A stretch of DNA of 64,000 nt from Adhaeribacter radiodurans (lineage in GTDB: Bacteria > Bacteroidota > Bacteroidia > Cytophagales > Hymenobacteraceae): assembly GCF_014075995.1 (NCBI RefSeq), contig NZ_CP055153.1:4898001-4962000 (forward strand), in the 5' to 3' direction. A program made the translations under genes and the position numbers. Within the stretch, counting starts at the first letter, position 1; the number at the start of each line of letters is the position of its first letter. Of the stretch, positions 10,363-20,533 are shown piece after piece. The notes under the pieces were generated by a model. It was not told where the DNA came from and did no database searches. It saw only the letters and a program-made list of their open reading frames with translations.

Positions 10363-11124
10363 ATGAAAATACAAATATCAACCTTGTGCTTTGCCCTCCT
10401 GGTAATACTTTGTTCTAAATCAGCTTTTAGCCAAGTAGCAACTAACGACTCGGCTTATTTAGCTGCCCGAATAACTAATCTCACCAATCGGTATACCCAA
10501 ACTATTGCCGATGCCAAACACTTGTTTAATGGTAAAGAGTACTTAACCTACGATAAGTATTATCTGAAAGGAAATCAGTTTTATAAGTCTGACCAAGAGC
10601 AGGAAGGAGAAGTATATTACGATGGGTATTTGTTTACGAACGTACCCTTATTATTTGATGTAATGCTGGACCAGATTGTTATTTCTGAGCCAAATGGTTC
10701 CTTGCAATTTAAACTCGAAAACAAGAAAGTATCTTATTTTAAAGTACACGGCCATTCTTTTATTCGATTGGTTGCCGATACCTTAACAGAATCCCCCATC
10801 AAAACCGGCTATTATGATTTATTAGTTAATGGCAAAACAAAATTATTTGCCAAACGGATGAAAAAAGTGTACGAGGATGCGACTATAAGAGGCATGGAAG
10901 GAGAATTTATAATAGAAGATAGATTTTATATTCGCCGGAATGATAAATACTACCCGGTTGGCACAAAGAAAACCGCGCTAAACGCCTTAGCCGATAACAA
11001 AAAAGAGCTACAGAAATACAGCCGCAGCCAACATTTAAAGTTTAAAAAAGAAATGCGCGAAGCTTCTCTCATTAACCTGGTACAACATTACAACCAATTG
11101 CCATCCGCACTGCTTAAGAATTAA
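10363..11124 (+). CDS. Secreted protein of unknown function, first gene of envelope operon
   Basis: This 253-residue protein has a signal peptide (about residues 1-23, ending AFSQ) and no transmembrane segment afterwards, so it is periplasmic or surface-located. The mature part is rich in Tyr, Lys and Asn, with a probable beta-rich core and a basic helical end (KKELQKYSRSQHLKFKKEM). I do not recognise a family. Its stop is 30 bases from the TonB-receptor start, which indicates cotranscription with the receptor, the DUF4249 lipoprotein and the MG2-like protein. It may be a substrate, processing partner or accessory factor of that receptor; this is inference from position. Confidence 0.75.
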   Translation: MKIQISTLCFALLVILCSKSAFSQVATNDSAYLAARITNLTNRYTQTIADAKHLFNGKEYLTYDKYYLKGNQFYKSDQEQEGEVYYDGYLFTNVPLLFDVMLDQIVISEPNGSLQFKLENKKVSYFKVHGHSFIRLVADTLTESPIKTGYYDLLVNGKTKLFAKRMKKVYEDATIRGMEGEFIIEDRFYIRRNDKYYPVGTKKTALNALADNKKELQKYSRSQHLKFKKEMREASLINLVQHYNQLPSALLKN

Positions 11125-11154
11125 ATATACTCGTTAGCCTAAAAAATACTGTTT

Positions 11155-13938
11155 ATGAATTATTACTTCCGTATAGTACTACTCTTGTTTCTGGTTACAG
11201 AAAGTTGGGTTGGTTACGGGCAGAATACAAAAAATAATGCAATTACGGGTGATTATAACAATTTACTTTTTTCAGAGTTTGCGAAGGCGATAGAAGCTCA
11301 AACCAAGTACCACTTTTTCTATGATCCGGCTACGGTAGATAGTTTATTTGTTACCATTCAGGTTAGAGAACAACCGCTGGAAACAGTACTTACTTCTGTT
11401 TTTAAAGGTACCAATTTACATTTTGCTACTGATACAGAAAACCGGGTTTATATTACCTCGGGTGTAACCTTGGATTTAAACCTACCCGACAATTATTTTA
11501 AACCGGAAGGCACTAATAATGCAGTAGCAAATAACAATCAGGTAAGCAACCGGGCAGGCGCAACATCGGGTAGTTCGCGTTCTTTAACTTTAGCGGAACG
11601 CAAGTTGTACGAAATAGGGCGAGCAGGAACCAATGCGAGTACCGGCAAAGCTACTTTGGCTGGTCACCTGCGCGACGTAAAATCCGGAGAACCGGTAATT
11701 GGGGCCGCCGTGTACGTACAATCACCTTCCATAGGCACCACTACTGACCAGTTTGGTTACTATTCTCTAACCTTACCCTTAGGACGCCAGGATTTATTTA
11801 TACGAGGTTCCGGCATAAAAAACACCAAACGCCAGATTTTACTGCAAAGCGATGGCCAGTTAGAAATTGAAGTAGAAGAAGATATTACCCCATTAAAAGA
11901 AGTAGTAATTGAAGCCGAAAAAGACAAGAATGTGGCAGGCATGCAAATGGGACTCGAAAAACTCGACATTAAAACCATGCGCCAGGTGCCCACTGCTTTC
12001 GGGGAAACAGATATTTTGCGGGTAGTGCTTACCCTACCCGGCGTAAAATCGGTGGGTGAAGGCAATACCGGCATGAACGTAAGGGGCGGCGCCACCGACC
12101 AAAATTTAATTCTTTTTAACGATGCTACTATTTACAATCCGGCGCACTTATTTGGCTTTTTTTCGGCCTTTAATCCTGATATTTTAAAAACAGTAGAGTT
12201 GTATAAAAGTGCGGTGCCTGCTAAATACGGCGGTCGGTTAGCGTCGGTGTTGGAAATTGCTACCCGCGATGGCAATAAAAAACAATTCTCGGGTTCCGGT
12301 GGCATTGGGTTGCTTACTAGTCGGCTTACCTTAGAAGGACCGATAGTAAAAGATAAAAGCGCTTTTCTTATTAGTGGTCGTAGTACTTACTCCGACTGGA
12401 TTCTGCAAAAGTTACAAAACAGCAGTTTTAAAAATAGCTCCGCCGCCTTTTACGACTTAAATGCCCACATCAGCCACGAGATAGATTCTAAAAATACTAT
12501 TTATGCTACTGGTTACCGAAGCCGTGATAAGTTTAAATTAGCTGCGGATACGCTGTATCAATACTTAAATCAAAATGCCAGTTTAAAGTGGAAACATATT
12601 TTTAACAATAAACTATACGGTGTGTTAACCGGAGCTTATAGTTACTATAAATACAATATTACCAGCGACATTAATCCGGTAAATGCTTCGCGGCTTAATT
12701 ACAGCATTAATCAATCAAACATACAAGCCGATTTCAGTTATTTTCATAACGCTAAACACACCTTCGATTTTGGGGCGAGTTCTATTTTGTACCATATTGC
12801 TCCGGGCAGTTTGCAACCATTAGGTACCGAATCTTTAATGGCTACAGATGTGCTGAGCCGGGAGAAAGCTTTAGAAAGTGCTATTTACGCTTCTGACCGG
12901 ATCGATATTTCGCCCCGCTTATCGGTTTCGGTGGGGTTGCGGTATTCTTTTTACCAGGCTCTAGGGCCAAAGGAAGTATACCAGTATTTACCCGAAATTT
13001 CGCGCAGTGAAAGTACCATTATCGATACTCTCCAGTATAAAAAAGGCGAGGCATTAGCTAAATACCACGGCCCGGAGTACCGGCTTTCGGCTAAAGTTGC
13101 ACTTACCGAAAACTCATCCCTGAAAGTGAGTTATAACCGCATGCGGCAGTACATTCACATGCTTTCCAATACTGCGGCCATGTCGCCGACCGATATCTGG
13201 AAACTAAGCGATTCTTACATCCGGCCACAAATTGGCGACCAGGTAGCTTTGGGTTACTACCGCAACTTTAAATCAAATACCATCGAAACTTCCGTGGAAA
13301 CTTATTATAAGCGAATGCACGATTTTGTGGATTATAAAAGCGGCGCTACCCTTTTGCTAAATCATCACATTGAAACCGATGTAGTAAATGCCGCCGGAAA
13401 AGCTTACGGATTAGAAATAATGGTGAAAAAACTAACCGGAAAATTAAACGGCTGGGTAAGTTATACCTATTCCCGGTCGCTGGTTAAAGTGAATGATGGC
13501 ACTACTTCGGATAAAATTAACGGGGGTTCGTACTATCCCAGTAACTTCGACAAACCCCACGATTTTACTTTAATAGGTAACTACCGGTTTAGTCGCCGGT
13601 TTAGCACTTCTTTAAATTTTACTTACAATACGGGTCGGCCTATTACCTTGCCTTTAGCTAAATATTTTGTAGATAATTCCTACCGGGTATATTACTCCGA
13701 CCGAAATGCCTACCGGGTGCCTGATTATTACCGAGCCGACTTTGCCATGAATATTGAAGGAAATCATAAAGTGCGGAAGCTGGCCCATAGCTCCTGGACC
13801 TTGGCTATTTACAACTTAACCGGGCGTAAGAACCCTTATTCTATTTATTTTAAATCGGAAGGTACTAAGATTAATGGCTACCAATTATCCATTTTTGGCC
13901 GGCCGATTCCTACCATCACCTATAATTTCAAATTCTAA
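11155..13938 (+). CDS. TonB-dependent outer-membrane receptor with STN and carboxypeptidase-like domains
   Basis: The 927-residue receptor imports a ligand across the outer membrane using TonB energy. In order: signal peptide (to about residue 23, ending YGQ), an STN domain (about 30-105, with FYDPATVDSLFVTIQV), a CarboxypepD_reg-like domain (about 165-245, GAAVYVQSPSIGTTTDQFGYY), a plug (about 270-390, with LPGVKSVGEGNTGMNVRGG) and a beta-barrel ending in Phe. STN domains usually signal to an anti-sigma factor, yet no FecI/FecR pair is nearby. Its stop overlaps the DUF4249 start by one base (TAATG), so translation is probably coupled. Ligand unknown; the linked DUF4249 gene sets it apart from the SusC proteins in this window. 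Confidence 0.93.
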   Translation: MNYYFRIVLLLFLVTESWVGYGQNTKNNAITGDYNNLLFSEFAKAIEAQTKYHFFYDPATVDSLFVTIQVREQPLETVLTSVFKGTNLHFATDTENRVYITSGVTLDLNLPDNYFKPEGTNNAVANNNQVSNRAGATSGSSRSLTLAERKLYEIGRAGTNASTGKATLAGHLRDVKSGEPVIGAAVYVQSPSIGTTTDQFGYYSLTLPLGRQDLFIRGSGIKNTKRQILLQSDGQLEIEVEEDITPLKEVVIEAEKDKNVAGMQMGLEKLDIKTMRQVPTAFGETDILRVVLTLPGVKSVGEGNTGMNVRGGATDQNLILFNDATIYNPAHLFGFFSAFNPDILKTVELYKSAVPAKYGGRLASVLEIATRDGNKKQFSGSGGIGLLTSRLTLEGPIVKDKSAFLISGRSTYSDWILQKLQNSSFKNSSAAFYDLNAHISHEIDSKNTIYATGYRSRDKFKLAADTLYQYLNQNASLKWKHIFNNKLYGVLTGAYSYYKYNITSDINPVNASRLNYSINQSNIQADFSYFHNAKHTFDFGASSILYHIAPGSLQPLGTESLMATDVLSREKALESAIYASDRIDISPRLSVSVGLRYSFYQALGPKEVYQYLPEISRSESTIIDTLQYKKGEALAKYHGPEYRLSAKVALTENSSLKVSYNRMRQYIHMLSNTAAMSPTDIWKLSDSYIRPQIGDQVALGYYRNFKSNTIETSVETYYKRMHDFVDYKSGATLLLNHHIETDVVNAAGKAYGLEIMVKKLTGKLNGWVSYTYSRSLVKVNDGTTSDKINGGSYYPSNFDKPHDFTLIGNYRFSRRFSTSLNFTYNTGRPITLPLAKYFVDNSYRVYYSDRNAYRVPDYYRADFAMNIEGNHKVRKLAHSSWTLAIYNLTGRKNPYSIYFKSEGTKINGYQLSIFGRPIPTITYNFKF

Positions 13939-15122
13939 TGAGTTTACTTCTGCGCTATCTTCAGGCGTTTTACTTCTTCGCACTGCTTTTGTTTTTAAGC
14001 AGTTGCGTAGATCCGTTTGACCCTAAGGTGAAAGATATACCCGAAAGTTTTATGGTGGTAGATGGTTTTATCAACACCCAGGGAGTTACTACTATAAAAC
14101 TTTCGCGAACCATTAACTTAACCGCCGATACAATTCCACCCGCTGAAAGGGGAGCTAGAGTGTACCTGGAAGAGGAAGCCGGAACGCAATTTATTTTAAG
14201 GGAACAAGAAGCCGGTACGTACACTTCGGATAACCTAAATTTAGATCCCCTAAAAAAATACCGCTTACATTTTTCCGCCGGCGGTAAAGAATATACCTCT
14301 GATTTTGTATCGGTAAAAACCACTCCGCTTATAAATGAGGTTACCTGGCAAGCAAAGGATGAAGGTATGCAAATTTACGTAAACAGCCAGGATGCCGCGA
14401 ATGACACCAAGTATTACCGTTGGAAGTACGAAGAAACCTGGGAATTTAATTCGGCTTATTTTGCCGCTTTAGAATACCGGGATAACGGCGTAAAAGCACG
14501 CAATTCAAACGAAAACATTTACGTATGCTGGAGAAGTGAAAACTCATCGGCCATAAAAATTGGCACTACCGCCCGGTTAAACGAAGATGTAATATCCAAC
14601 TATCCCTTGGTTTTGGTGCCCCAGGGTTCAGTTAAATTAGGTCGCCGTTACAGTATTCTGGTAAAACAATACGCGCTTAGCCAAGAAGAATACGCGTACT
14701 ACGAAGCCTTGCGCAAAAATACCGAGAATATTGGTTCTTTGTTCGATCCACTTCCTACCCAGCTTACCGGCAATATTCATTGTGTAACCAATGCTTCCGA
14801 ACCGGTAATAGGTTTTATTGGAGCCCACTCTGAAACGCAAAAAAGAATTTTTGTGGACAAAGAAGAGTTGCCTAAAACCTGGGGTCGATTTGCCACCGGT
14901 TACGAAGATTGTCCGCCGCTGGATTCTATTATTATTGATTATCAGCAATATCATAATATAGAAGATGTAGAAGCTTATTTTGCGCCGGGTATTTACATAC
15001 CCATAACTCCCATTTACCCTAAAGCAGGCATTCCGCGCTTGATTGGCTTTACCTCGTCTTCCATTTCCTGCGTGGATTGCCGGCTGAGAGGAACCAATGT
15101 AAAACCTGATTTCTGGAAGTAA
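13938..15122 (+). CDS. DUF4249 outer-membrane lipoprotein
   Basis: This 394-residue protein is a DUF4249 member. It has a lipoprotein signal with lipobox LSSC (Cys23), followed by DPFDPKVKDIPESFMVVDG, the typical family start. DUF4249 genes sit next to TonB receptors in many Bacteroidota, so a SusD-like surface accessory role is plausible but unproven. The mature protein is beta-rich; four cysteines near its end (in CVTN, YEDC and SCVDC contexts) could form disulfides. The start codon overlaps the receptor stop by one base, and the next gene begins 22 bases after its stop. All of this argues for one transcription unit. Confidence 0.88.
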   Translation: MSLLLRYLQAFYFFALLLFLSSCVDPFDPKVKDIPESFMVVDGFINTQGVTTIKLSRTINLTADTIPPAERGARVYLEEEAGTQFILREQEAGTYTSDNLNLDPLKKYRLHFSAGGKEYTSDFVSVKTTPLINEVTWQAKDEGMQIYVNSQDAANDTKYYRWKYEETWEFNSAYFAALEYRDNGVKARNSNENIYVCWRSENSSAIKIGTTARLNEDVISNYPLVLVPQGSVKLGRRYSILVKQYALSQEEYAYYEALRKNTENIGSLFDPLPTQLTGNIHCVTNASEPVIGFIGAHSETQKRIFVDKEELPKTWGRFATGYEDCPPLDSIIIDYQQYHNIEDVEAYFAPGIYIPITPIYPKAGIPRLIGFTSSSISCVDCRLRGTNVKPDFWK

Positions 15123-15144
15123 TTACTAAATACGTATACGCCAA

Positions 15145-17607
15145 GTGAGAAGCTATCCTTATCCTACTACACCTTTCCGGACCGGTTTTTGGGCGAGAAT
15201 TTCCCCTAAAGCTTTTCTTTTGGTTTACCTGCTATTTAGCTTACTGTTTATTTCTAGTTATCCGGCTTTTGCGCAAACAGATTCCTTAACTAGTATTACC
15301 CGACAATTTAACCGCTACAGCGAACAAACCTTACCGGAAAAACTATTTCTACACCTCGATCGGCCTTTGTACCTGGCCGGCGAAACCATGTGGTTTAAAA
15401 TTTACGCCGTAGATGGCACTTTTCATCAACCCATAAATTTAAGCAAAGTTGCCTACGTGGAGGTACTCGATAAAGAGCAAAAACCTGTATTGCAAGGTAA
15501 AATTGCCTTATCTGAAGCAACCGGACAAGGTTCTTTTACTTTACCTGTATCCTTAGTTTCGGGAAATTATTTTGTGCGGGCCTATACCAGCTGGATGAAA
15601 AACTTTAGTGCGGATTATTATTTTCAAAGTCCGGTAACTATTATAAATACTTTAACCAACGCAGGGGTAAAACCCACCAAAGATTCGGCAGTTTACGATG
15701 TTCAATTTTTCCCGGAAGGCGGCAACCTGGTTAAAGATCTGGCAAGTACCGTGGCGTTTAAGATTACCGACAAATCGGGGCGCGGCATAGATGCCGAAGG
15801 CAGTATTCTAGATAAACAAGGCCGGGTTCTTACAACTTTTAAAACTTTGAAATTCGGGTTAGGGCAATTTGCTTTTACGCCAACCGAGGCACTCCGGTAC
15901 ACAGCTACTTTAAAATTACCGAATGGTACAACTATTACCCAAGCTTTGCCTCCGGTATATGAACAAGGTTATGTAATGCACCTGGAAGAAGCCAGTCCGG
16001 AACAACTTAAAATAACCGTTCAAAGTAACGGAACTGGGCAAGTTGTGGAAGATATTTTTCTGTTAGGCCATGCTCGCCAAAAATTATCTGTAGCCTTGGG
16101 TAACCGCTTAATTAATGGAACCACTGCGTTTACGTTTAATAAAAAAGATTTAGCCCCGGGTATTTCGCACTTTACTATTTTAAATGCCCGTAAACAGCCA
16201 CTTTGCGAAAGGTTGTATTTCCAGCGCCCTACCCAAAGTTTAGTTATTACTTCTGCTACCGACAAAACTAATTACACTGCCCACGAAAAAGTAAGTTTAC
16301 AAGTAACTACGGCAAATCAAGCCAAAGAAGCATTAGCGGCTAATTTATCGGTAGCCGTTTACCGGTTAGATTCGCTGCCGGCACTGGCCCCTCCTTCCAT
16401 TAACAGCTATTTATGGCTAAGCTCCGACCTGAGAGGAACCATCGAAAACCCGGAATATTATTTTACTTCTACCGCTCCGGAAGTTACTGCTGTTGCTAAT
16501 AACCTGATGCTGACACAAGGCTGGAGGCGGTTCCGCTGGGAAGATGTTTTTAAGAAAAAAGTTGATTCATTAGAGTTTATTCCTGAATTAAATGGCCATC
16601 TGATTCGGGGAAGAATTACAAATAGGAGCACAAAGCAACCTGAGCCCAATATTGTAACTTACCTGGCTTCCCCTAGCCGCCTGGTTCGTCTTTATAATTC
16701 TTTTAGTAACGAAAAAGGAAATCTACAATTTGAAATGAAAGATTTCTTTGGCTCGCGCGAGATTGTGGTACAAAGCAATACCCGGCAAGACAGCCTGTAT
16801 CAATTCGAGATTTTTAATCCTTTCTCGCTCCACTATTCGACCAGCCAGGTTCCCGCTTTTACTTTTTCCGAAAAATTTAAATCTGAAATTGTGCAAAGGC
16901 ACGTGCAAATGCAAGTACAAAATACCTTCCATAAAAAACGTGCTTTTACGCTCCCCTCTCCTACCTTGGATAGTTTGCCATTTTACGGTCAGGCTGATGA
17001 AAAATACCGGCTCGACGATTATACCCGCTTTAAAGTAATGGAAGAAGTTTTACGGGAGTACGTGCCCGGCGTACAAGTCCGGATTCGGAAGGATGGCTTT
17101 CATTTTATGGTGTTCGATAAGGTAAACAAAACTATTTTTCAGGAGAACCCGATGGTGTTGTTAGATGGAGTACCCGTTTTTAATCTTAATAAAATAATGG
17201 CGGTAGATCCTCTGAAAATTCAAAAACTAGAAGTAATTACCAGCCGCTATTTTCAGGGAACTTCCACCTACAACGGTTTAGTAAGTTTTTCTACGTATAA
17301 AGGCGATTTAGATGGTTATACCATGGATCCGCACGCATTTGTGCAGGAATACGAAGGCTTGCAACAACAAAGAGAGTTCTACGCACCGCGTTACGAAACC
17401 ACCCAGGAAAAGCAAAATCGTTTGCCCGATTTAAGAAACTTATTGTACTGGAACCCTCAGGTTAATACGGCGACAACAGGTAGCGAGAAACTTGAATTCT
17501 TCACCTCCGATAAAGCCGGCAAATACCTGATATTCATTCAAGGCCTTTCTAAAAGTGGCTTGGCTGGGAGCAGTAATTTTTCTTTCGAGGTAAAACAAGC
17601 CCTTTAA
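15145..17607 (+). CDS. Secreted MG2-domain protein with degenerate TonB-plug tail
   Basis: The 820-residue protein starts at GTG (15145) and has a long basic n-region before its signal segment (cleavage near residue 44, AFAQ). Residues 50-165 resemble an alpha-2-macroglobulin MG2 domain: LFLHLDRPLYLAGETMWFK, then GSFTLPVSLVSGNYFVRAYT. Further beta domains follow. Near residues 670-720, MVLLDGVPVFNLNKI and KIQKLEVITSRYF resemble the DG-P and IE-IEV parts of a TonB plug, but no barrel follows. Such proteins occur with TonB receptors and DUF4249 lipoproteins in Bacteroidota. A role as a surface partner of the receptor is inference. It is the last gene of the operon. Confidence 0.82.
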   Translation: MRSYPYPTTPFRTGFWARISPKAFLLVYLLFSLLFISSYPAFAQTDSLTSITRQFNRYSEQTLPEKLFLHLDRPLYLAGETMWFKIYAVDGTFHQPINLSKVAYVEVLDKEQKPVLQGKIALSEATGQGSFTLPVSLVSGNYFVRAYTSWMKNFSADYYFQSPVTIINTLTNAGVKPTKDSAVYDVQFFPEGGNLVKDLASTVAFKITDKSGRGIDAEGSILDKQGRVLTTFKTLKFGLGQFAFTPTEALRYTATLKLPNGTTITQALPPVYEQGYVMHLEEASPEQLKITVQSNGTGQVVEDIFLLGHARQKLSVALGNRLINGTTAFTFNKKDLAPGISHFTILNARKQPLCERLYFQRPTQSLVITSATDKTNYTAHEKVSLQVTTANQAKEALAANLSVAVYRLDSLPALAPPSINSYLWLSSDLRGTIENPEYYFTSTAPEVTAVANNLMLTQGWRRFRWEDVFKKKVDSLEFIPELNGHLIRGRITNRSTKQPEPNIVTYLASPSRLVRLYNSFSNEKGNLQFEMKDFFGSREIVVQSNTRQDSLYQFEIFNPFSLHYSTSQVPAFTFSEKFKSEIVQRHVQMQVQNTFHKKRAFTLPSPTLDSLPFYGQADEKYRLDDYTRFKVMEEVLREYVPGVQVRIRKDGFHFMVFDKVNKTIFQENPMVLLDGVPVFNLNKIMAVDPLKIQKLEVITSRYFQGTSTYNGLVSFSTYKGDLDGYTMDPHAFVQEYEGLQQQREFYAPRYETTQEKQNRLPDLRNLLYWNPQVNTATTGSEKLEFFTSDKAGKYLIFIQGLSKSGLAGSSNFSFEVKQAL

Positions 17608-17857: not shown

Positions 17858-20533
17858 ATGAGTAGTTATGCTTGCCAACCGCCTAAAAACAATGATTATA
17901 ATAACCATAAATCTGCTATTTGGCAATCAGAGCAGTATGCAATATATCCGGATAAAGTAGTGCAGCAGGAATTTGCAGCCCATGCTCTATCACCAACTAA
18001 AATGACTTCAAATTATAAAAGTAAAGCGAAGGAATTTCAGAATCCGAAACTTACTTTTAAGTTCAGCATTAATGGCAAAGACAATGAAATGGTGCCGGGT
18101 GAAGATCACCAGTTTACCTGTATCGCGCAAAACGGCACCTGCGAAACACCTCTCATTACTTTTGGCGAGCCGTTGAAGTTAACCGGTAAAGTACCGGTTA
18201 ACACTTATCTCCCTCCCAACACTAAACTTAAAATTCGCCTAGATATGCGCCAGGTGCTGGAAGCTTTTAATATAGAGGGATTCTTTACGACATATAACGG
18301 CGATAAAATTTATAAAGAAGATTTTAAAGGGGTATTTGTAGCAGGCAACCCAGCTCCTTTAACCTGGGATTTCGACAACCTGGCCAACTACCCTGAACTG
18401 GAATTGAAAGACCCGTATGGAAACGGTATTTTTGAAGTTACTTTATTACTAACTTCGGATGAGGAAGATACTATTACTGCCTCTAATTGGGAATTATCTA
18501 AGGAAGTAGCTTCTTTTCCTCAGTATTCCTCTAACTATCCGGTGGTAGATGCCTTGTATAATCTGAGTCTGGAAGAAATGGTAAATGCCATAGAACCCGA
18601 TAGCACCTTCCGGACCGGAAAAGAATGGTCGGGTGTCTGGACGCGCGATATCAGCTATAGTATTATTTTATCTATGGCTATTCTGCAGCCCGAAGTGGCC
18701 CGTATTAGTTTGCTACGGAAAGTAACCAAGCACCAACGGATTATTCAGGATACCGGCACTGGGGGGGCTTACCCGATTTCCTCCGACCGGATAGTTTGGG
18801 CAATAGCCGCCTGGGAATTATACAAAGTAACCGGCGATATTAATTGGTTAAAAGAATCTTATCAGATTATTAAAAACTCGCTGGAAGATGATTTGAAAAA
18901 TGTGTATAATCCTAAAACCGGCTTGTTCAGGGGTGAGTCTTCTTTTTTGGATTGGCGCGAGCAAACCTACCCGGAATGGATGCAGCCCACTGATATTTTC
19001 GAATCGGAATGCTTGGGAACCAATGCCGTGTTTTACCAGGCCAGTAGCATTCTGGCGCAAATGGCCGAAATACTAAATGAAAAGTCAGTCGCTGAAAAAT
19101 ACCGCCAACTAGCCGAAAAAGTAAAAAAAGGAATAAACGAGCAATTGTGGTTACCCGAAAACGGCTATTATGGGCAATACGTATACGGGCGTAACTTTAA
19201 AATACTATCACCTAAAGCCGAAGCGCTGGGGGAAGCATTATGCGTGCTTTTTGATATTGCGGACTCTGAAAAGCAACAATCTATAGTAGCTAAAACGCCG
19301 GTTACGCCCTACGGCATACCCTGTATTTATCCGCAAATCCCAAATATTCCGCCTTACCACAATAACGCAGTATGGCCATTTGTGCAGTCGTACTGGTCTT
19401 TGGCAGCGGCAAAAGTAGGCAACAAGCAAGCGCTTACCGAAAGTATAAGTGCCATTTACCGGCCAGCTGCCCTCTTGTTAACCAATAAAGAAAACTTTGT
19501 GGCCAGTAACGGTGATTATGCCGGTACGCAAATTAACTCCAGTAATATGTTGTGGAGCCTGGCCGGTAATCTGAGTTTGATCTATAAAGTTATTTTCGGC
19601 ATGGATTTCCAGCCCAACTGCTTACAATTCAAACCCGTAGTACCACAAGCTTTTGCCGGAAACCGAACCCTGAAAAATTTTAAATACCGCCAGACTATCC
19701 TGGATATTTACTTAGAAGGCCACGGAAATAAGATTAAAACTGTTACGCTGGATAATAAAGCAATTCCTCAGGCGGAAATTCCGGCTCACCTCACCGGCCG
19801 GCACGTGCTGAAGATAGAGCTAGAAAATAACAGATTGTCCGGTAGCAAAATAAATAAAGTAGCGGTAGAGTTTTCGCCGATTTCACCCGAAGTTTCTTAC
19901 GCTAACGGCACCTTATCTTGGGAAGAAGTAGCAGATGCTAAATTTTACAAAGTAGTGCAGAATGGAAAAGAATTACTAAAATCAGAGAATACAAGCGTAA
20001 AAGTACTCGCCTCTGAATATTCTGAATACCAAGTAATAGCTGTAACCAGTAAAGGACACGAATCTTTTGCGAGTGAGCCGCTAGTAGTAACATCTGAAAA
20101 AAACACTCAATTACTAGAACTGGAAAAAAGTGTGGCTAAAGCTCATTCTTCTTACAAGGAAGCTTCCGGAATTGGATTTATAGAAATAAGTAAAGATAAA
20201 AGTGCAAGTTTAAACCTCCCGTTTACAGTAGCCGAACCCGGAATATACGCCATTGATTTCCGGTATGCCAACGGCGAAGGACCGATTAACACCAATAACA
20301 AATGCGCCATTCGCACGCTTAAAATAAATGATAATTTTTTAGGAACAATTGTTTTACCGCAGCGAGGTTCTAACGAATGGTCAGATTGGGGATTTTCGAA
20401 TGCGGTGCAGGTAAAACTCGAAAAAGGAACGCACCAACTTACTTTGGCTTTTGAGCCTGTAAATGAAAATATGAACGAAGAGGTAAACCGGGCCATGCTA
20501 GATTGTATACGGCTTACTAAAATTACTAATTAA
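17858..20533 (+). CDS. Six-hairpin glycosidase-like protein with FnIII-like and CBM-like C-terminal domains
   Basis: An 891-residue probable polysaccharide- or oligosaccharide-processing enzyme. The N-terminal 210 residues are beta-rich. About 225-620 form an (alpha/alpha)6 region with EWSGVWTRDISYS, resembling the WTRD motif of GH15/GH63-like and debranching enzymes, and later PYHNNAVWPF and a conserved W-rich turn. About 660-750 look fibronectin-III-like, and the end (about 755-891) resembles a CBM6/CBM35 domain (EPGIYAIDFRYANG). The annotated start lacks a full export signal, but the frame upstream encodes a hydrophobic stretch running into SSYAC with no usual start codon, so the true start is uncertain. 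Exact GH family not assigned. Confidence 0.78.
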   Translation: MSSYACQPPKNNDYNNHKSAIWQSEQYAIYPDKVVQQEFAAHALSPTKMTSNYKSKAKEFQNPKLTFKFSINGKDNEMVPGEDHQFTCIAQNGTCETPLITFGEPLKLTGKVPVNTYLPPNTKLKIRLDMRQVLEAFNIEGFFTTYNGDKIYKEDFKGVFVAGNPAPLTWDFDNLANYPELELKDPYGNGIFEVTLLLTSDEEDTITASNWELSKEVASFPQYSSNYPVVDALYNLSLEEMVNAIEPDSTFRTGKEWSGVWTRDISYSIILSMAILQPEVARISLLRKVTKHQRIIQDTGTGGAYPISSDRIVWAIAAWELYKVTGDINWLKESYQIIKNSLEDDLKNVYNPKTGLFRGESSFLDWREQTYPEWMQPTDIFESECLGTNAVFYQASSILAQMAEILNEKSVAEKYRQLAEKVKKGINEQLWLPENGYYGQYVYGRNFKILSPKAEALGEALCVLFDIADSEKQQSIVAKTPVTPYGIPCIYPQIPNIPPYHNNAVWPFVQSYWSLAAAKVGNKQALTESISAIYRPAALLLTNKENFVASNGDYAGTQINSSNMLWSLAGNLSLIYKVIFGMDFQPNCLQFKPVVPQAFAGNRTLKNFKYRQTILDIYLEGHGNKIKTVTLDNKAIPQAEIPAHLTGRHVLKIELENNRLSGSKINKVAVEFSPISPEVSYANGTLSWEEVADAKFYKVVQNGKELLKSENTSVKVLASEYSEYQVIAVTSKGHESFASEPLVVTSEKNTQLLELEKSVAKAHSSYKEASGIGFIEISKDKSASLNLPFTVAEPGIYAIDFRYANGEGPINTNNKCAIRTLKINDNFLGTIVLPQRGSNEWSDWGFSNAVQVKLEKGTHQLTLAFEPVNENMNEEVNRAMLDCIRLTKITN

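What the first reader, a model, noticed from the sequence alone, without database searches (positions are those of the whole stretch)
10363..17607. Four-gene envelope operon: secreted unknown, STN-TonB receptor, DUF4249 lipoprotein, MG2-like protein with a plug-like tail
Spacings of 30, -1 and 22 bases imply one transcript. The receptor has an STN signalling domain but no FecI/FecR partner nearby, and the last protein seems to combine a macroglobulin-type domain with a TonB-plug-like end that lacks a barrel. A barrel-less plug could dock to the receptor or TonB. DUF4249 would replace SusD. Ligand and function are unknown. This is the strongest candidate here for an under-described system.
Basis: partly seen in the sequence, partly recalled or inferred. 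Interest (0 to 1): 0.72.

Follow-up and report, generated by a model that had tools for sequence, protein, structure and literature searches.

The report
Conserved TonB transport operon with pseudo-plug
Many bacteria of the Bacteroidota group, including a human gut species, carry the same undescribed set of four neighbouring genes: an outer-membrane gate, its surface lid, and two unfamiliar partners that probably work on the inner side of the gate.

Summary
The four genes are real, at the stated coordinates and spacings. The order gene1 – STN receptor – DUF4249 – MG2/plug protein recurs in 75 of 80 named loci (the closest relatives of the MG2 protein); four of the other five are cut by contig ends. 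Parabacteroides distasonis has it too. DUF4249 copies vary from 0 to 4. The last protein has macroglobulin-type domains with a SusC-like NTE–plug module near its C-terminus. Relatives outside the operon type often keep a TonB-box-like motif before that plug (16 of 24); operon types do not (1 of 56). STN receptors with DUF4249 but without gene1/MG2 had FecR upstream in 5 of 5 cases; 126 operon and related loci gave one FecR-like hit, on the opposite strand. In one genome gene1 is fused to the receptor's N-terminus, without STN. DUF4249 as a transporter partner is already proposed (PMC11003636). Best reading: a lidded TonB transporter with two predicted periplasmic partners, a new variant of a known kind. 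Substrate and contacts are unknown.

The parts
10363..11124 (+). gene 1: secreted protein of an undescribed family, 253 aa, signal peptide ending in SAFS|Q; predicted periplasmic
   Evidence: directly upstream of the receptor in 29 of 29 other-genome loci L018-L046; fused to the receptor in L199
11155..13938 (+). TonB-dependent receptor: STN, NTE (CarbopepD_reg_2), TonB box, plug, barrel; 927 aa
11308..11457 (+). STN domain of the receptor (residues 52-101)
   Evidence: Pfam PF07660 E 7e-7
11893..11916 (+). receptor TonB-box-like motif (residues 247-254)
   Evidence: sequence; L247 invariant, E249 and V250 nearly so; pattern found in 40 of 50 receptors
13938..15122 (+). DUF4249 lipoprotein (lipobox SSC), predicted surface lid; four further near-invariant cysteines
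   Evidence: Pfam PF14054 E 2e-57
15145..17607 (+). MG2/pseudo-plug protein, 820 aa, signal peptide ending in AFA|Q
15340..15624 (+). MG2 domain (residues 66-160)
   Evidence: Pfam PF01835 E 4e-13
16576..16824 (+). NTE-like (carboxypeptidase-regulatory-like) domain, residues about 478-560
   Evidence: hhalign to the receptor NTE, E 6e-6
16957..17349 (+). plug-like domain without a TonB-box-like motif, residues about 605-735
   Evidence: hhalign to the receptor plug, E 7e-4 over 36 columns; Pfam Plug in 22 of 56 relatives; motif test
17362..17604 (+). C-terminal macroglobulin domain (residues about 740-820)
   Evidence: weak PF00207 hits in relatives

Best explanation
A conserved TonB-dependent outer-membrane uptake system with two dedicated periplasmic partners. 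Shown by sequence: the gene order; a receptor with STN, NTE, TonB box and plug; DUF4249 lipoproteins in 0 to 4 copies; gene 1 and the MG2/plug protein with signal peptidase I type signals and no type IX secretion model matched. Inferred: DUF4249 lids capture a ligand at the surface; TonB pulls the receptor's own plug through the receptor's TonB box; gene 1 sits on the receptor's periplasmic N-terminal domains; the MG2 protein is a periplasmic scaffold of macroglobulin domains whose TonB-box-less plug copy contacts the receptor (barrel mouth, NTE or STN), receiving the cargo or controlling plug movement. It takes the place that FecR takes for other STN receptors of this type.
For: Gene order in 75 of 80 named loci across Hymenobacter, Pontibacter, Rufibacter, Larkinella, Spirosoma, Dyadobacter, Runella, Chryseolinea, Ohtaekwangia, Mucilaginibacter, Niastella, Flavobacterium and others, and in Parabacteroides distasonis. 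In-frame gene 1-receptor fusion in L199, where no STN was found. FecR upstream in 5 of 5 STN/DUF4249 receptors lacking gene1/MG2, against one opposite-strand hit in 126 operon and related loci. TonB-box-like motif in 16 of 24 relatives outside the operon type against 1 of 56 operon types; shuffled segments 5% and 2%. Macroglobulin fold, Z 20.6, rmsd 5.1, 319 of 820 residues aligned. Signals by regular expression: peptidase I with Gln in 99 of 113 gene 1, 105 of 118 MG2, 107 of 113 receptors; lipobox in 110 of 145 DUF4249. STN profile in 112 of 112 receptors.
Against: No physical contact, localisation, substrate or phenotype was tested. Location rests on signal type only, and a lipobox-like pattern also turned up in 12 of 113 gene 1 and 8 of 118 MG2 proteins. 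The plug fold was not tested on its own; Foldseek TM-scores to macroglobulins are low (0.06 to 0.34 in the 50 rows shown), so the domain arrangement differs. Gene 1 has no fold match. Only one fusion was seen, in a fragmented assembly. The own-genome second operon L012 lacks gene 1, and L127 has the MG2 gene alone. The system is patchy: gene 1 in 26 of 295 class genomes at E <= 1e-6. Pfam finds STN in only 32 of 50 receptors. No single neighbour gene was constant.
Confidence: 0.5

Rival explanations
1. Signalling module: gene 1 and the MG2/plug protein read the receptor's STN domain and pass the signal on, replacing FecR, rather than taking part in transport.
For: STN profile in 112 of 112 operon receptors; FecR in 5 of 5 STN receptors lacking gene1/MG2, and one opposite-strand hit in 126 operon and related loci; gene 1 lies just upstream of the receptor, where FecR lies in four of those five (in L226 one ORF lies between); in L199 gene 1 is fused where STN would be.
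Against: Neither protein has a recognised cytoplasmic or sigma-binding part, and no regulator was constantly next door. STN could simply be a contact surface.
Confidence: 0.2
2. Outward system: the receptor with the macroglobulin-type protein exports or assembles something at the cell surface instead of importing a ligand.
For: Macroglobulin-type domains; no constant catabolic neighbour; variable number of surface lipoproteins.
Against: Receptor keeps TonB box and plug, and DUF4249 is proposed to work with a TonB transporter (PMC11003636, passages).
Confidence: 0.12
3. Loose operon: the MG2/plug protein is a periplasmic protease trap or envelope protector that is merely co-transcribed.
For: Fold shared with bacterial alpha-2-macroglobulins.
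Against: Thioester motif C-x-E-Q in 0 of 56 members, which are only 789-850 aa long; strong linkage; NTE-plug module shared with the receptor.
Confidence: 0.08

Closest known systems
TonB transporter with DUF4249 partner (BT2172-BT2173 of Bacteroides thetaiotaomicron)
   Same: TonB-dependent receptor next to a DUF4249 gene; joint function proposed, and the cited preprint's title speaks of lids (PMC11003636, passages)
   Different: The passages read name no gene 1, MG2/plug protein or STN; among 80 fetched class-draw DUF4249 regions 1 had an MG2/plug neighbour; a further one that I did not fetch, G005 C11, is an operon
SusCD / RagAB
   Same: NTE, TonB box, plug, barrel plus surface lipoprotein
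   Different: DUF4249 instead of SusD; STN lies before the NTE here, while PMC7782687 reports the NTE before the STN in SusCs (passages); two predicted periplasmic partners; lid count 0 to 4
FecA-FecI-FecR type STN receptors
   Same: STN at the receptor N-terminus
   Different: No FecR in the window or on the operon strand of 126 operon and related loci
Bacterial alpha-2-macroglobulins (Salmonella and E. coli, 4u48, 4ziq)
   Same: Macroglobulin domains, Z about 20
   Different: No thioester motif; shorter; carries a SusC-like NTE-plug module
MG2/plug proteins outside the operon type (L013; [quoted passage not shown]
   Same: MG2, plug-like module, C-terminal macroglobulin domain
   Different: TonB-box-like motif kept in 16 of 24; the three whose wider neighbourhood I read (L013, L298, L300) had no adjacent receptor/DUF4249 pair

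Membership tests
DUF4249-partnered TonB transporter | TonB-dependent receptor with plug and TonB box | tested here: met
DUF4249-partnered TonB transporter | DUF4249 lipoprotein encoded next to it | tested here: met
   in the window; absent from 5 of 80 homologous loci
DUF4249-partnered TonB transporter | DUF4249 forms a lid over the barrel | not testable with these tools
   No complex prediction; no solved DUF4249 relative found by sequence
SusCD | SusD/RagB lipoprotein partner | tested here: not met
   The adjacent lipoprotein is DUF4249 with no other Pfam hit
FecA/FecI/FecR signalling receptor | STN domain | tested here: met
FecA/FecI/FecR signalling receptor | FecR anti-sigma gene beside the receptor | tested here: not met
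Alpha-2-macroglobulin | chain of macroglobulin domains | tested here: met
   overall TM-scores low
Alpha-2-macroglobulin | thioester motif for covalent trapping | tested here: not met
   0 of 56 members carry C-x-E-Q; some known family members also lack it (recalled)
TonB-dependent receptor plug (PF07715) in the MG2 protein | plug sequence similarity | tested here: inconclusive
   Window protein below threshold; 22 of 56 relatives; L013 7e-15; hhalign probability 27% over 36 columns
TonB-dependent receptor plug (PF07715) in the MG2 protein | TonB box before the plug | tested here: not met
   1 of 56 operon-type members matches the pattern
Type IX secretion cargo (MG2 protein) | C-terminal secretion domain | tested here: inconclusive
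   No such NCBIfam model among those matched by 56 members; absence of a match is weak

The most novel reading that the evidence does not exclude
A transporter part not described before: a periplasmic macroglobulin ring that carries a copy of the receptor's own NTE-plug module in the region where macroglobulins carry the bait region, with its TonB box lost. When TonB pulls the real plug out, this pseudo-plug enters or caps the barrel from the periplasmic side, sealing the pore and taking over the cargo, with gene 1 as adaptor on STN/NTE.
Probability: 0.12. Interest if true: 0.88.

Novelty: new variant of a known kind. Interest (0 to 1): 0.62.

Why it matters
TonB transporters with lids are major nutrient gates of Bacteroidota, and how large cargo is received on the inner side without opening the membrane is unsettled (background knowledge). 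This operon adds two conserved, probably periplasmic partners to such a gate, gives STN an apparent role without FecR, and occurs in Parabacteroides distasonis, a gut species, so the question can be tested. It also brings a function within reach for MG2/plug proteins, which turned up in 59 of 296 phylum genomes drawn and, in the two records with annotated copies that I looked at most closely, are called hypothetical or plug-domain proteins.

Tried and rejected
Gene 1 function by fold: the model is confident (pLDDT 91.4), but no PDB chain reached Foldseek E 0.001 or VIA Z 5, and profile searches gave no credible match. This is inconclusive, not proof of a new fold.

Strict rule 'STN goes with MG2': the own genome suggested it (window receptor 7e-7 and L012 receptor 0.0049 for STN, both with MG2; L014-L017 without either), but the class draw shows STN receptors without MG2. 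Replaced by the FecR-or-gene1/MG2 split. The three N-extended receptors L230, L268 and L271 show neither STN nor MG2 and were left out of that split.

A fifth conserved gene: clustering of 1228 neighbouring ORFs around 114 loci found clusters in at most 18 loci, none constant. The glycosidase after the operon in the window was next door only in the closest relative (L047) among the regions and is not counted as a part.

Co-evolution: distance correlations over 71 unique single-DUF operons are 0.76 to 0.91, and the nearest operon by gene 1, DUF4249 or MG2 equals that by receptor in 37 to 40 of 71. Shared ancestry can explain the correlations, so this is not used as evidence of contact.

Papers on Riemerella and Bacteroides that mention 'TonB-dependent receptor plug' genes (passages) could not be tied to this family. 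Searches for DUF4249, for MG2 or macroglobulin with TonB, for plug with macroglobulin, and for 'MG2 domain-containing protein' showed no description of the MG2/plug protein or the operon among the papers listed; two searches listed 10 of 16 and 12 of 49 papers, seen as listings. The bioRxiv preprint on lids (10.1101/2023.03.17.533168) was seen only as a citation and may already mention some of this.

Selection and post-hoc choices: the seed alignment A1 of the 80-locus scan held 36 MG2 proteins from regions picked for gene 1, plus L013, and the scan keeps the best-scoring relatives, so 75 of 80 describes the operon type and not all MG2/plug proteins. The 40 fetched regions and the 80 named loci overlap in part (equal contig lengths). 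The gene 1 cut-off of 79 bits for the adjacency count (16 of 16) was chosen after seeing the table; weaker hits, from 78 bits down, had no listed MG2 match within 10 kb in genomes of both draws (one, in G294, had one at about 11 kb); G515 was not examined and G454 is the fusion case. One search scored only up to three candidates per genome, up to nine. The TonB-box pattern is permissive, hence the shuffle control; L190 and short pieces were dropped from the 24, and the 56 include L127. One search lists 124 DUF4249 places (sum of its per-genome counts), six of them in the own genome; 80 regions were fetched, some holding several places, some cut by contig ends. I left out G005 C11:105172, an operon, and the weakest places. 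In 7 of the 80 no receptor was found in reach and in 2 the receptor piece was short.

Full report
Observation. The four genes are present as described, with gaps of 30, -1 and 22 bases. Pfam assigns STN, NTE (CarbopepD_reg_2) and Plug to the receptor, DUF4249 to the third protein and MG2 to the fourth; gene 1 has no hit above cut-off. The window lies at 4,898,001-4,962,000 of contig 2 of a 6.9 Mb two-contig genome.

Conservation. Gene 1 relatives were found in 128 of 150 genomes of the family at E <= 0.001, nine of them only weakly (6.5e-12 or worse). In the 29 other-genome loci held from that search the receptor lies directly downstream in 29 of 29. Of 40 larger regions fetched, 33 carry all four genes (in L049 gene 1 is in two pieces; L072 has two operons in tandem), three have gene 1, receptor and MG2 without DUF4249, one is cut by its contig (L054), and three picked for weak gene 1 matches have none of the other genes. 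A scan of named genomes seeded with the MG2 protein returned 80 loci, the best 80 of 577 confirmed: 75 carry gene1-receptor-DUF4249(n)-MG2 (n = 1 in 50, 2 in 12, 3 in 7 counting a fragment in L158, 4 in 1, 0 in 5), four are cut by contig ends, and L127 has the MG2 gene alone. These are the relatives closest to the operon type, so the figure does not speak for all MG2/plug proteins. Median gaps are 36 (gene 1 to receptor), 2 (receptor to DUF4249) and 14.5 bases (DUF4249 to MG2). In the five loci without DUF4249 the receptor-to-MG2 gap is 9 to 137 bases, so there is no room for it. In Parabacteroides distasonis the genes are annotated hypothetical, TonB-dependent receptor, DUF4249, hypothetical, on a record labelled plasmid, and match the profiles at E 2e-48, 0, 1e-85 and 5e-113. 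In wider draws, gene 1 was found in 26 of 295 class genomes (E <= 1e-6) and the MG2/plug family in 59 of 296 phylum genomes (E <= 1e-10). For the 16 gene 1 hits of 79 bits or more in genomes of both draws, an MG2/plug match lies 4.0 to 8.4 kb away on the same strand in 16 of 16 (cut-off chosen after the fact).

The MG2 protein. The model has pLDDT 87.7 and pTM 0.85. It matches bacterial alpha-2-macroglobulins (4u48, Z 20.6, rmsd 5.1, 319 aligned) and complement C3/C5 (for example 8oq3_A, Z 19.0, rmsd 5.8, 429 aligned). Foldseek E-values are about 1e-15 but whole-chain TM-scores are low, so the domains are shared and their arrangement differs. C3c chain 2a74_A covers model residues 46-476 (Z 12.2), whole C3 covers 46-818. 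With recalled C3 domain limits, this puts the NTE-plug stretch (about 478-735) where C3 has its anaphylatoxin insert and macroglobulins their bait region; this is an inference from alignment ranges. Profile comparison links residues 478-560 to the receptor NTE (E 6e-6, probability 85%) and 605-735 to the receptor plug (E 7e-4, probability 27%, 36 columns); pairings with other receptor parts had E >= 0.004. Pfam Plug is found in 22 of 56 relatives and strongly in the paralogue L013, which has no receptor beside it (7e-15). No thioester motif is present in 56 members. With one pattern and one anchor, a TonB-box-like motif precedes the plug in 16 of 24 relatives outside the operon type and 1 of 56 operon types, against 5% and 2% in shuffled segments. 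The receptor keeps its own box: a stricter pattern finds it in 40 of 50.

STN, FecR and gene 1. A profile made from these receptors finds STN in 112 of 112 operon receptors longer than 850 aa (about a third were used to build it, and some operons are counted in both fetch sets); Pfam finds it in 32 of 50. To see what other DUF4249 receptors look like, 80 regions around DUF4249 places from 60 class genomes (58 with matches, 124 places) were fetched. A usable receptor was found in 71: 62 have the NTE near the N-terminus and no STN hit, 5 have STN (L197, L200, L223, L226, L269), 3 have another N-terminal extension (L230, L268, L271), and L199 is a fusion. An MG2/plug neighbour was found in L199 only. 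All five STN cases have FecR upstream on the same strand, in L226 with one ORF between, and four have an identified sigma factor. A FecR profile built from these five gives one hit in 126 operon and related loci, downstream on the opposite strand in L123. L199 has gene 1 fused in frame to the receptor (1122 aa; gene 1 at 50-248, NTE at 356-443) with no STN hit, followed by DUF4249 and a 606-aa MG2 protein. This is the best hint that gene 1 works on the periplasmic side of the receptor. It is a single case in an assembly of about 190 contigs.

Location. Gene 1, receptor and MG2 relatives mostly end their signal peptide with Gln at +1 (99 of 113, 107 of 113, 105 of 118), and DUF4249 mostly shows a lipobox (110 of 145); lipobox-like patterns also occur in 12 gene 1 and 8 MG2 proteins (regular expressions on unrefined starts). 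Gln at +1 is the Q-rule for signal peptidase I substrates in this phylum (PMC5837995, passages), which holds for periplasmic and further exported proteins alike. No type IX secretion model was among the NCBIfam matches. Periplasmic location is therefore likely, not shown.

Mechanism and known systems. In SusC transporters the NTE precedes the TonB box and plug, and STN domains work with anti-sigma factors; that paper puts the NTE before the STN (PMC7782687, passages), whereas here the STN comes first. DUF4249 has been proposed to act with TonB transporter BT2172 (PMC11003636, passages). I therefore read the operon as a lidded TonB uptake system with two extra, probably periplasmic, parts. Gene 1 would sit on the receptor's N-terminal domains. 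The MG2 protein would offer a plug copy that TonB probably cannot pull and that may contact the receptor or hold the cargo. Contacts, cargo and direction are inferred. Rivals are a signalling role replacing FecR, an outward system, and an unrelated protease trap; the last is weakened by the missing thioester and the strong linkage.

Novelty. The receptor-DUF4249 pair is known. The conserved four-gene unit, the FecR alternative, the gene 1 fusion and the missing TonB-box-like motif in the operon-type plug were not seen described in the listings and passages of my searches of the held library. The bioRxiv work on lids could not be read.

Noticed in passing
window 13938-15122: DUF4249 proteins of this operon have four near-invariant cysteines besides the lipid one (197, 325, 378, 381; 34, 33, 34, 34 of 34) and a C-terminal CxxC motif: two disulfides or a metal site.
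   Followed up: partly
L012:3758-9567: Second, diverged receptor-DUF4249-short MG2 operon in the same genome, without gene 1.
   Followed up: partly
L013:7494-9956: MG2/plug protein without a receptor beside it, with a clear plug (7e-15) and a TonB-box-like motif.
   Followed up: partly
L049:2976-3739: In this same-genus genome gene 1 is in two pieces (95 and 109 aa) while receptor, DUF4249 and MG2 look whole.
   Followed up: no
L083:3258-4631; L084:15203-16851: Distant gene 1 relatives in tandem pairs with no receptor match in the fetched region, so the gene 1 family may have other roles.
   Followed up: no
L298:4947-9547: In Bacteroides finegoldii an MG2/plug gene directly follows ABC transporter genes.
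   Followed up: no
G357, G170, G373, G281: MG2/plug relatives in open frames of about 1500 aa, perhaps fusions worth reading.
   Followed up: no
window 17858-20533: Glycosidase-like protein (Bac_rhamnosid6H, MGH1-like) 250 bases after the operon; next door also in the closest relative L047 but in no other region.
   Followed up: partly
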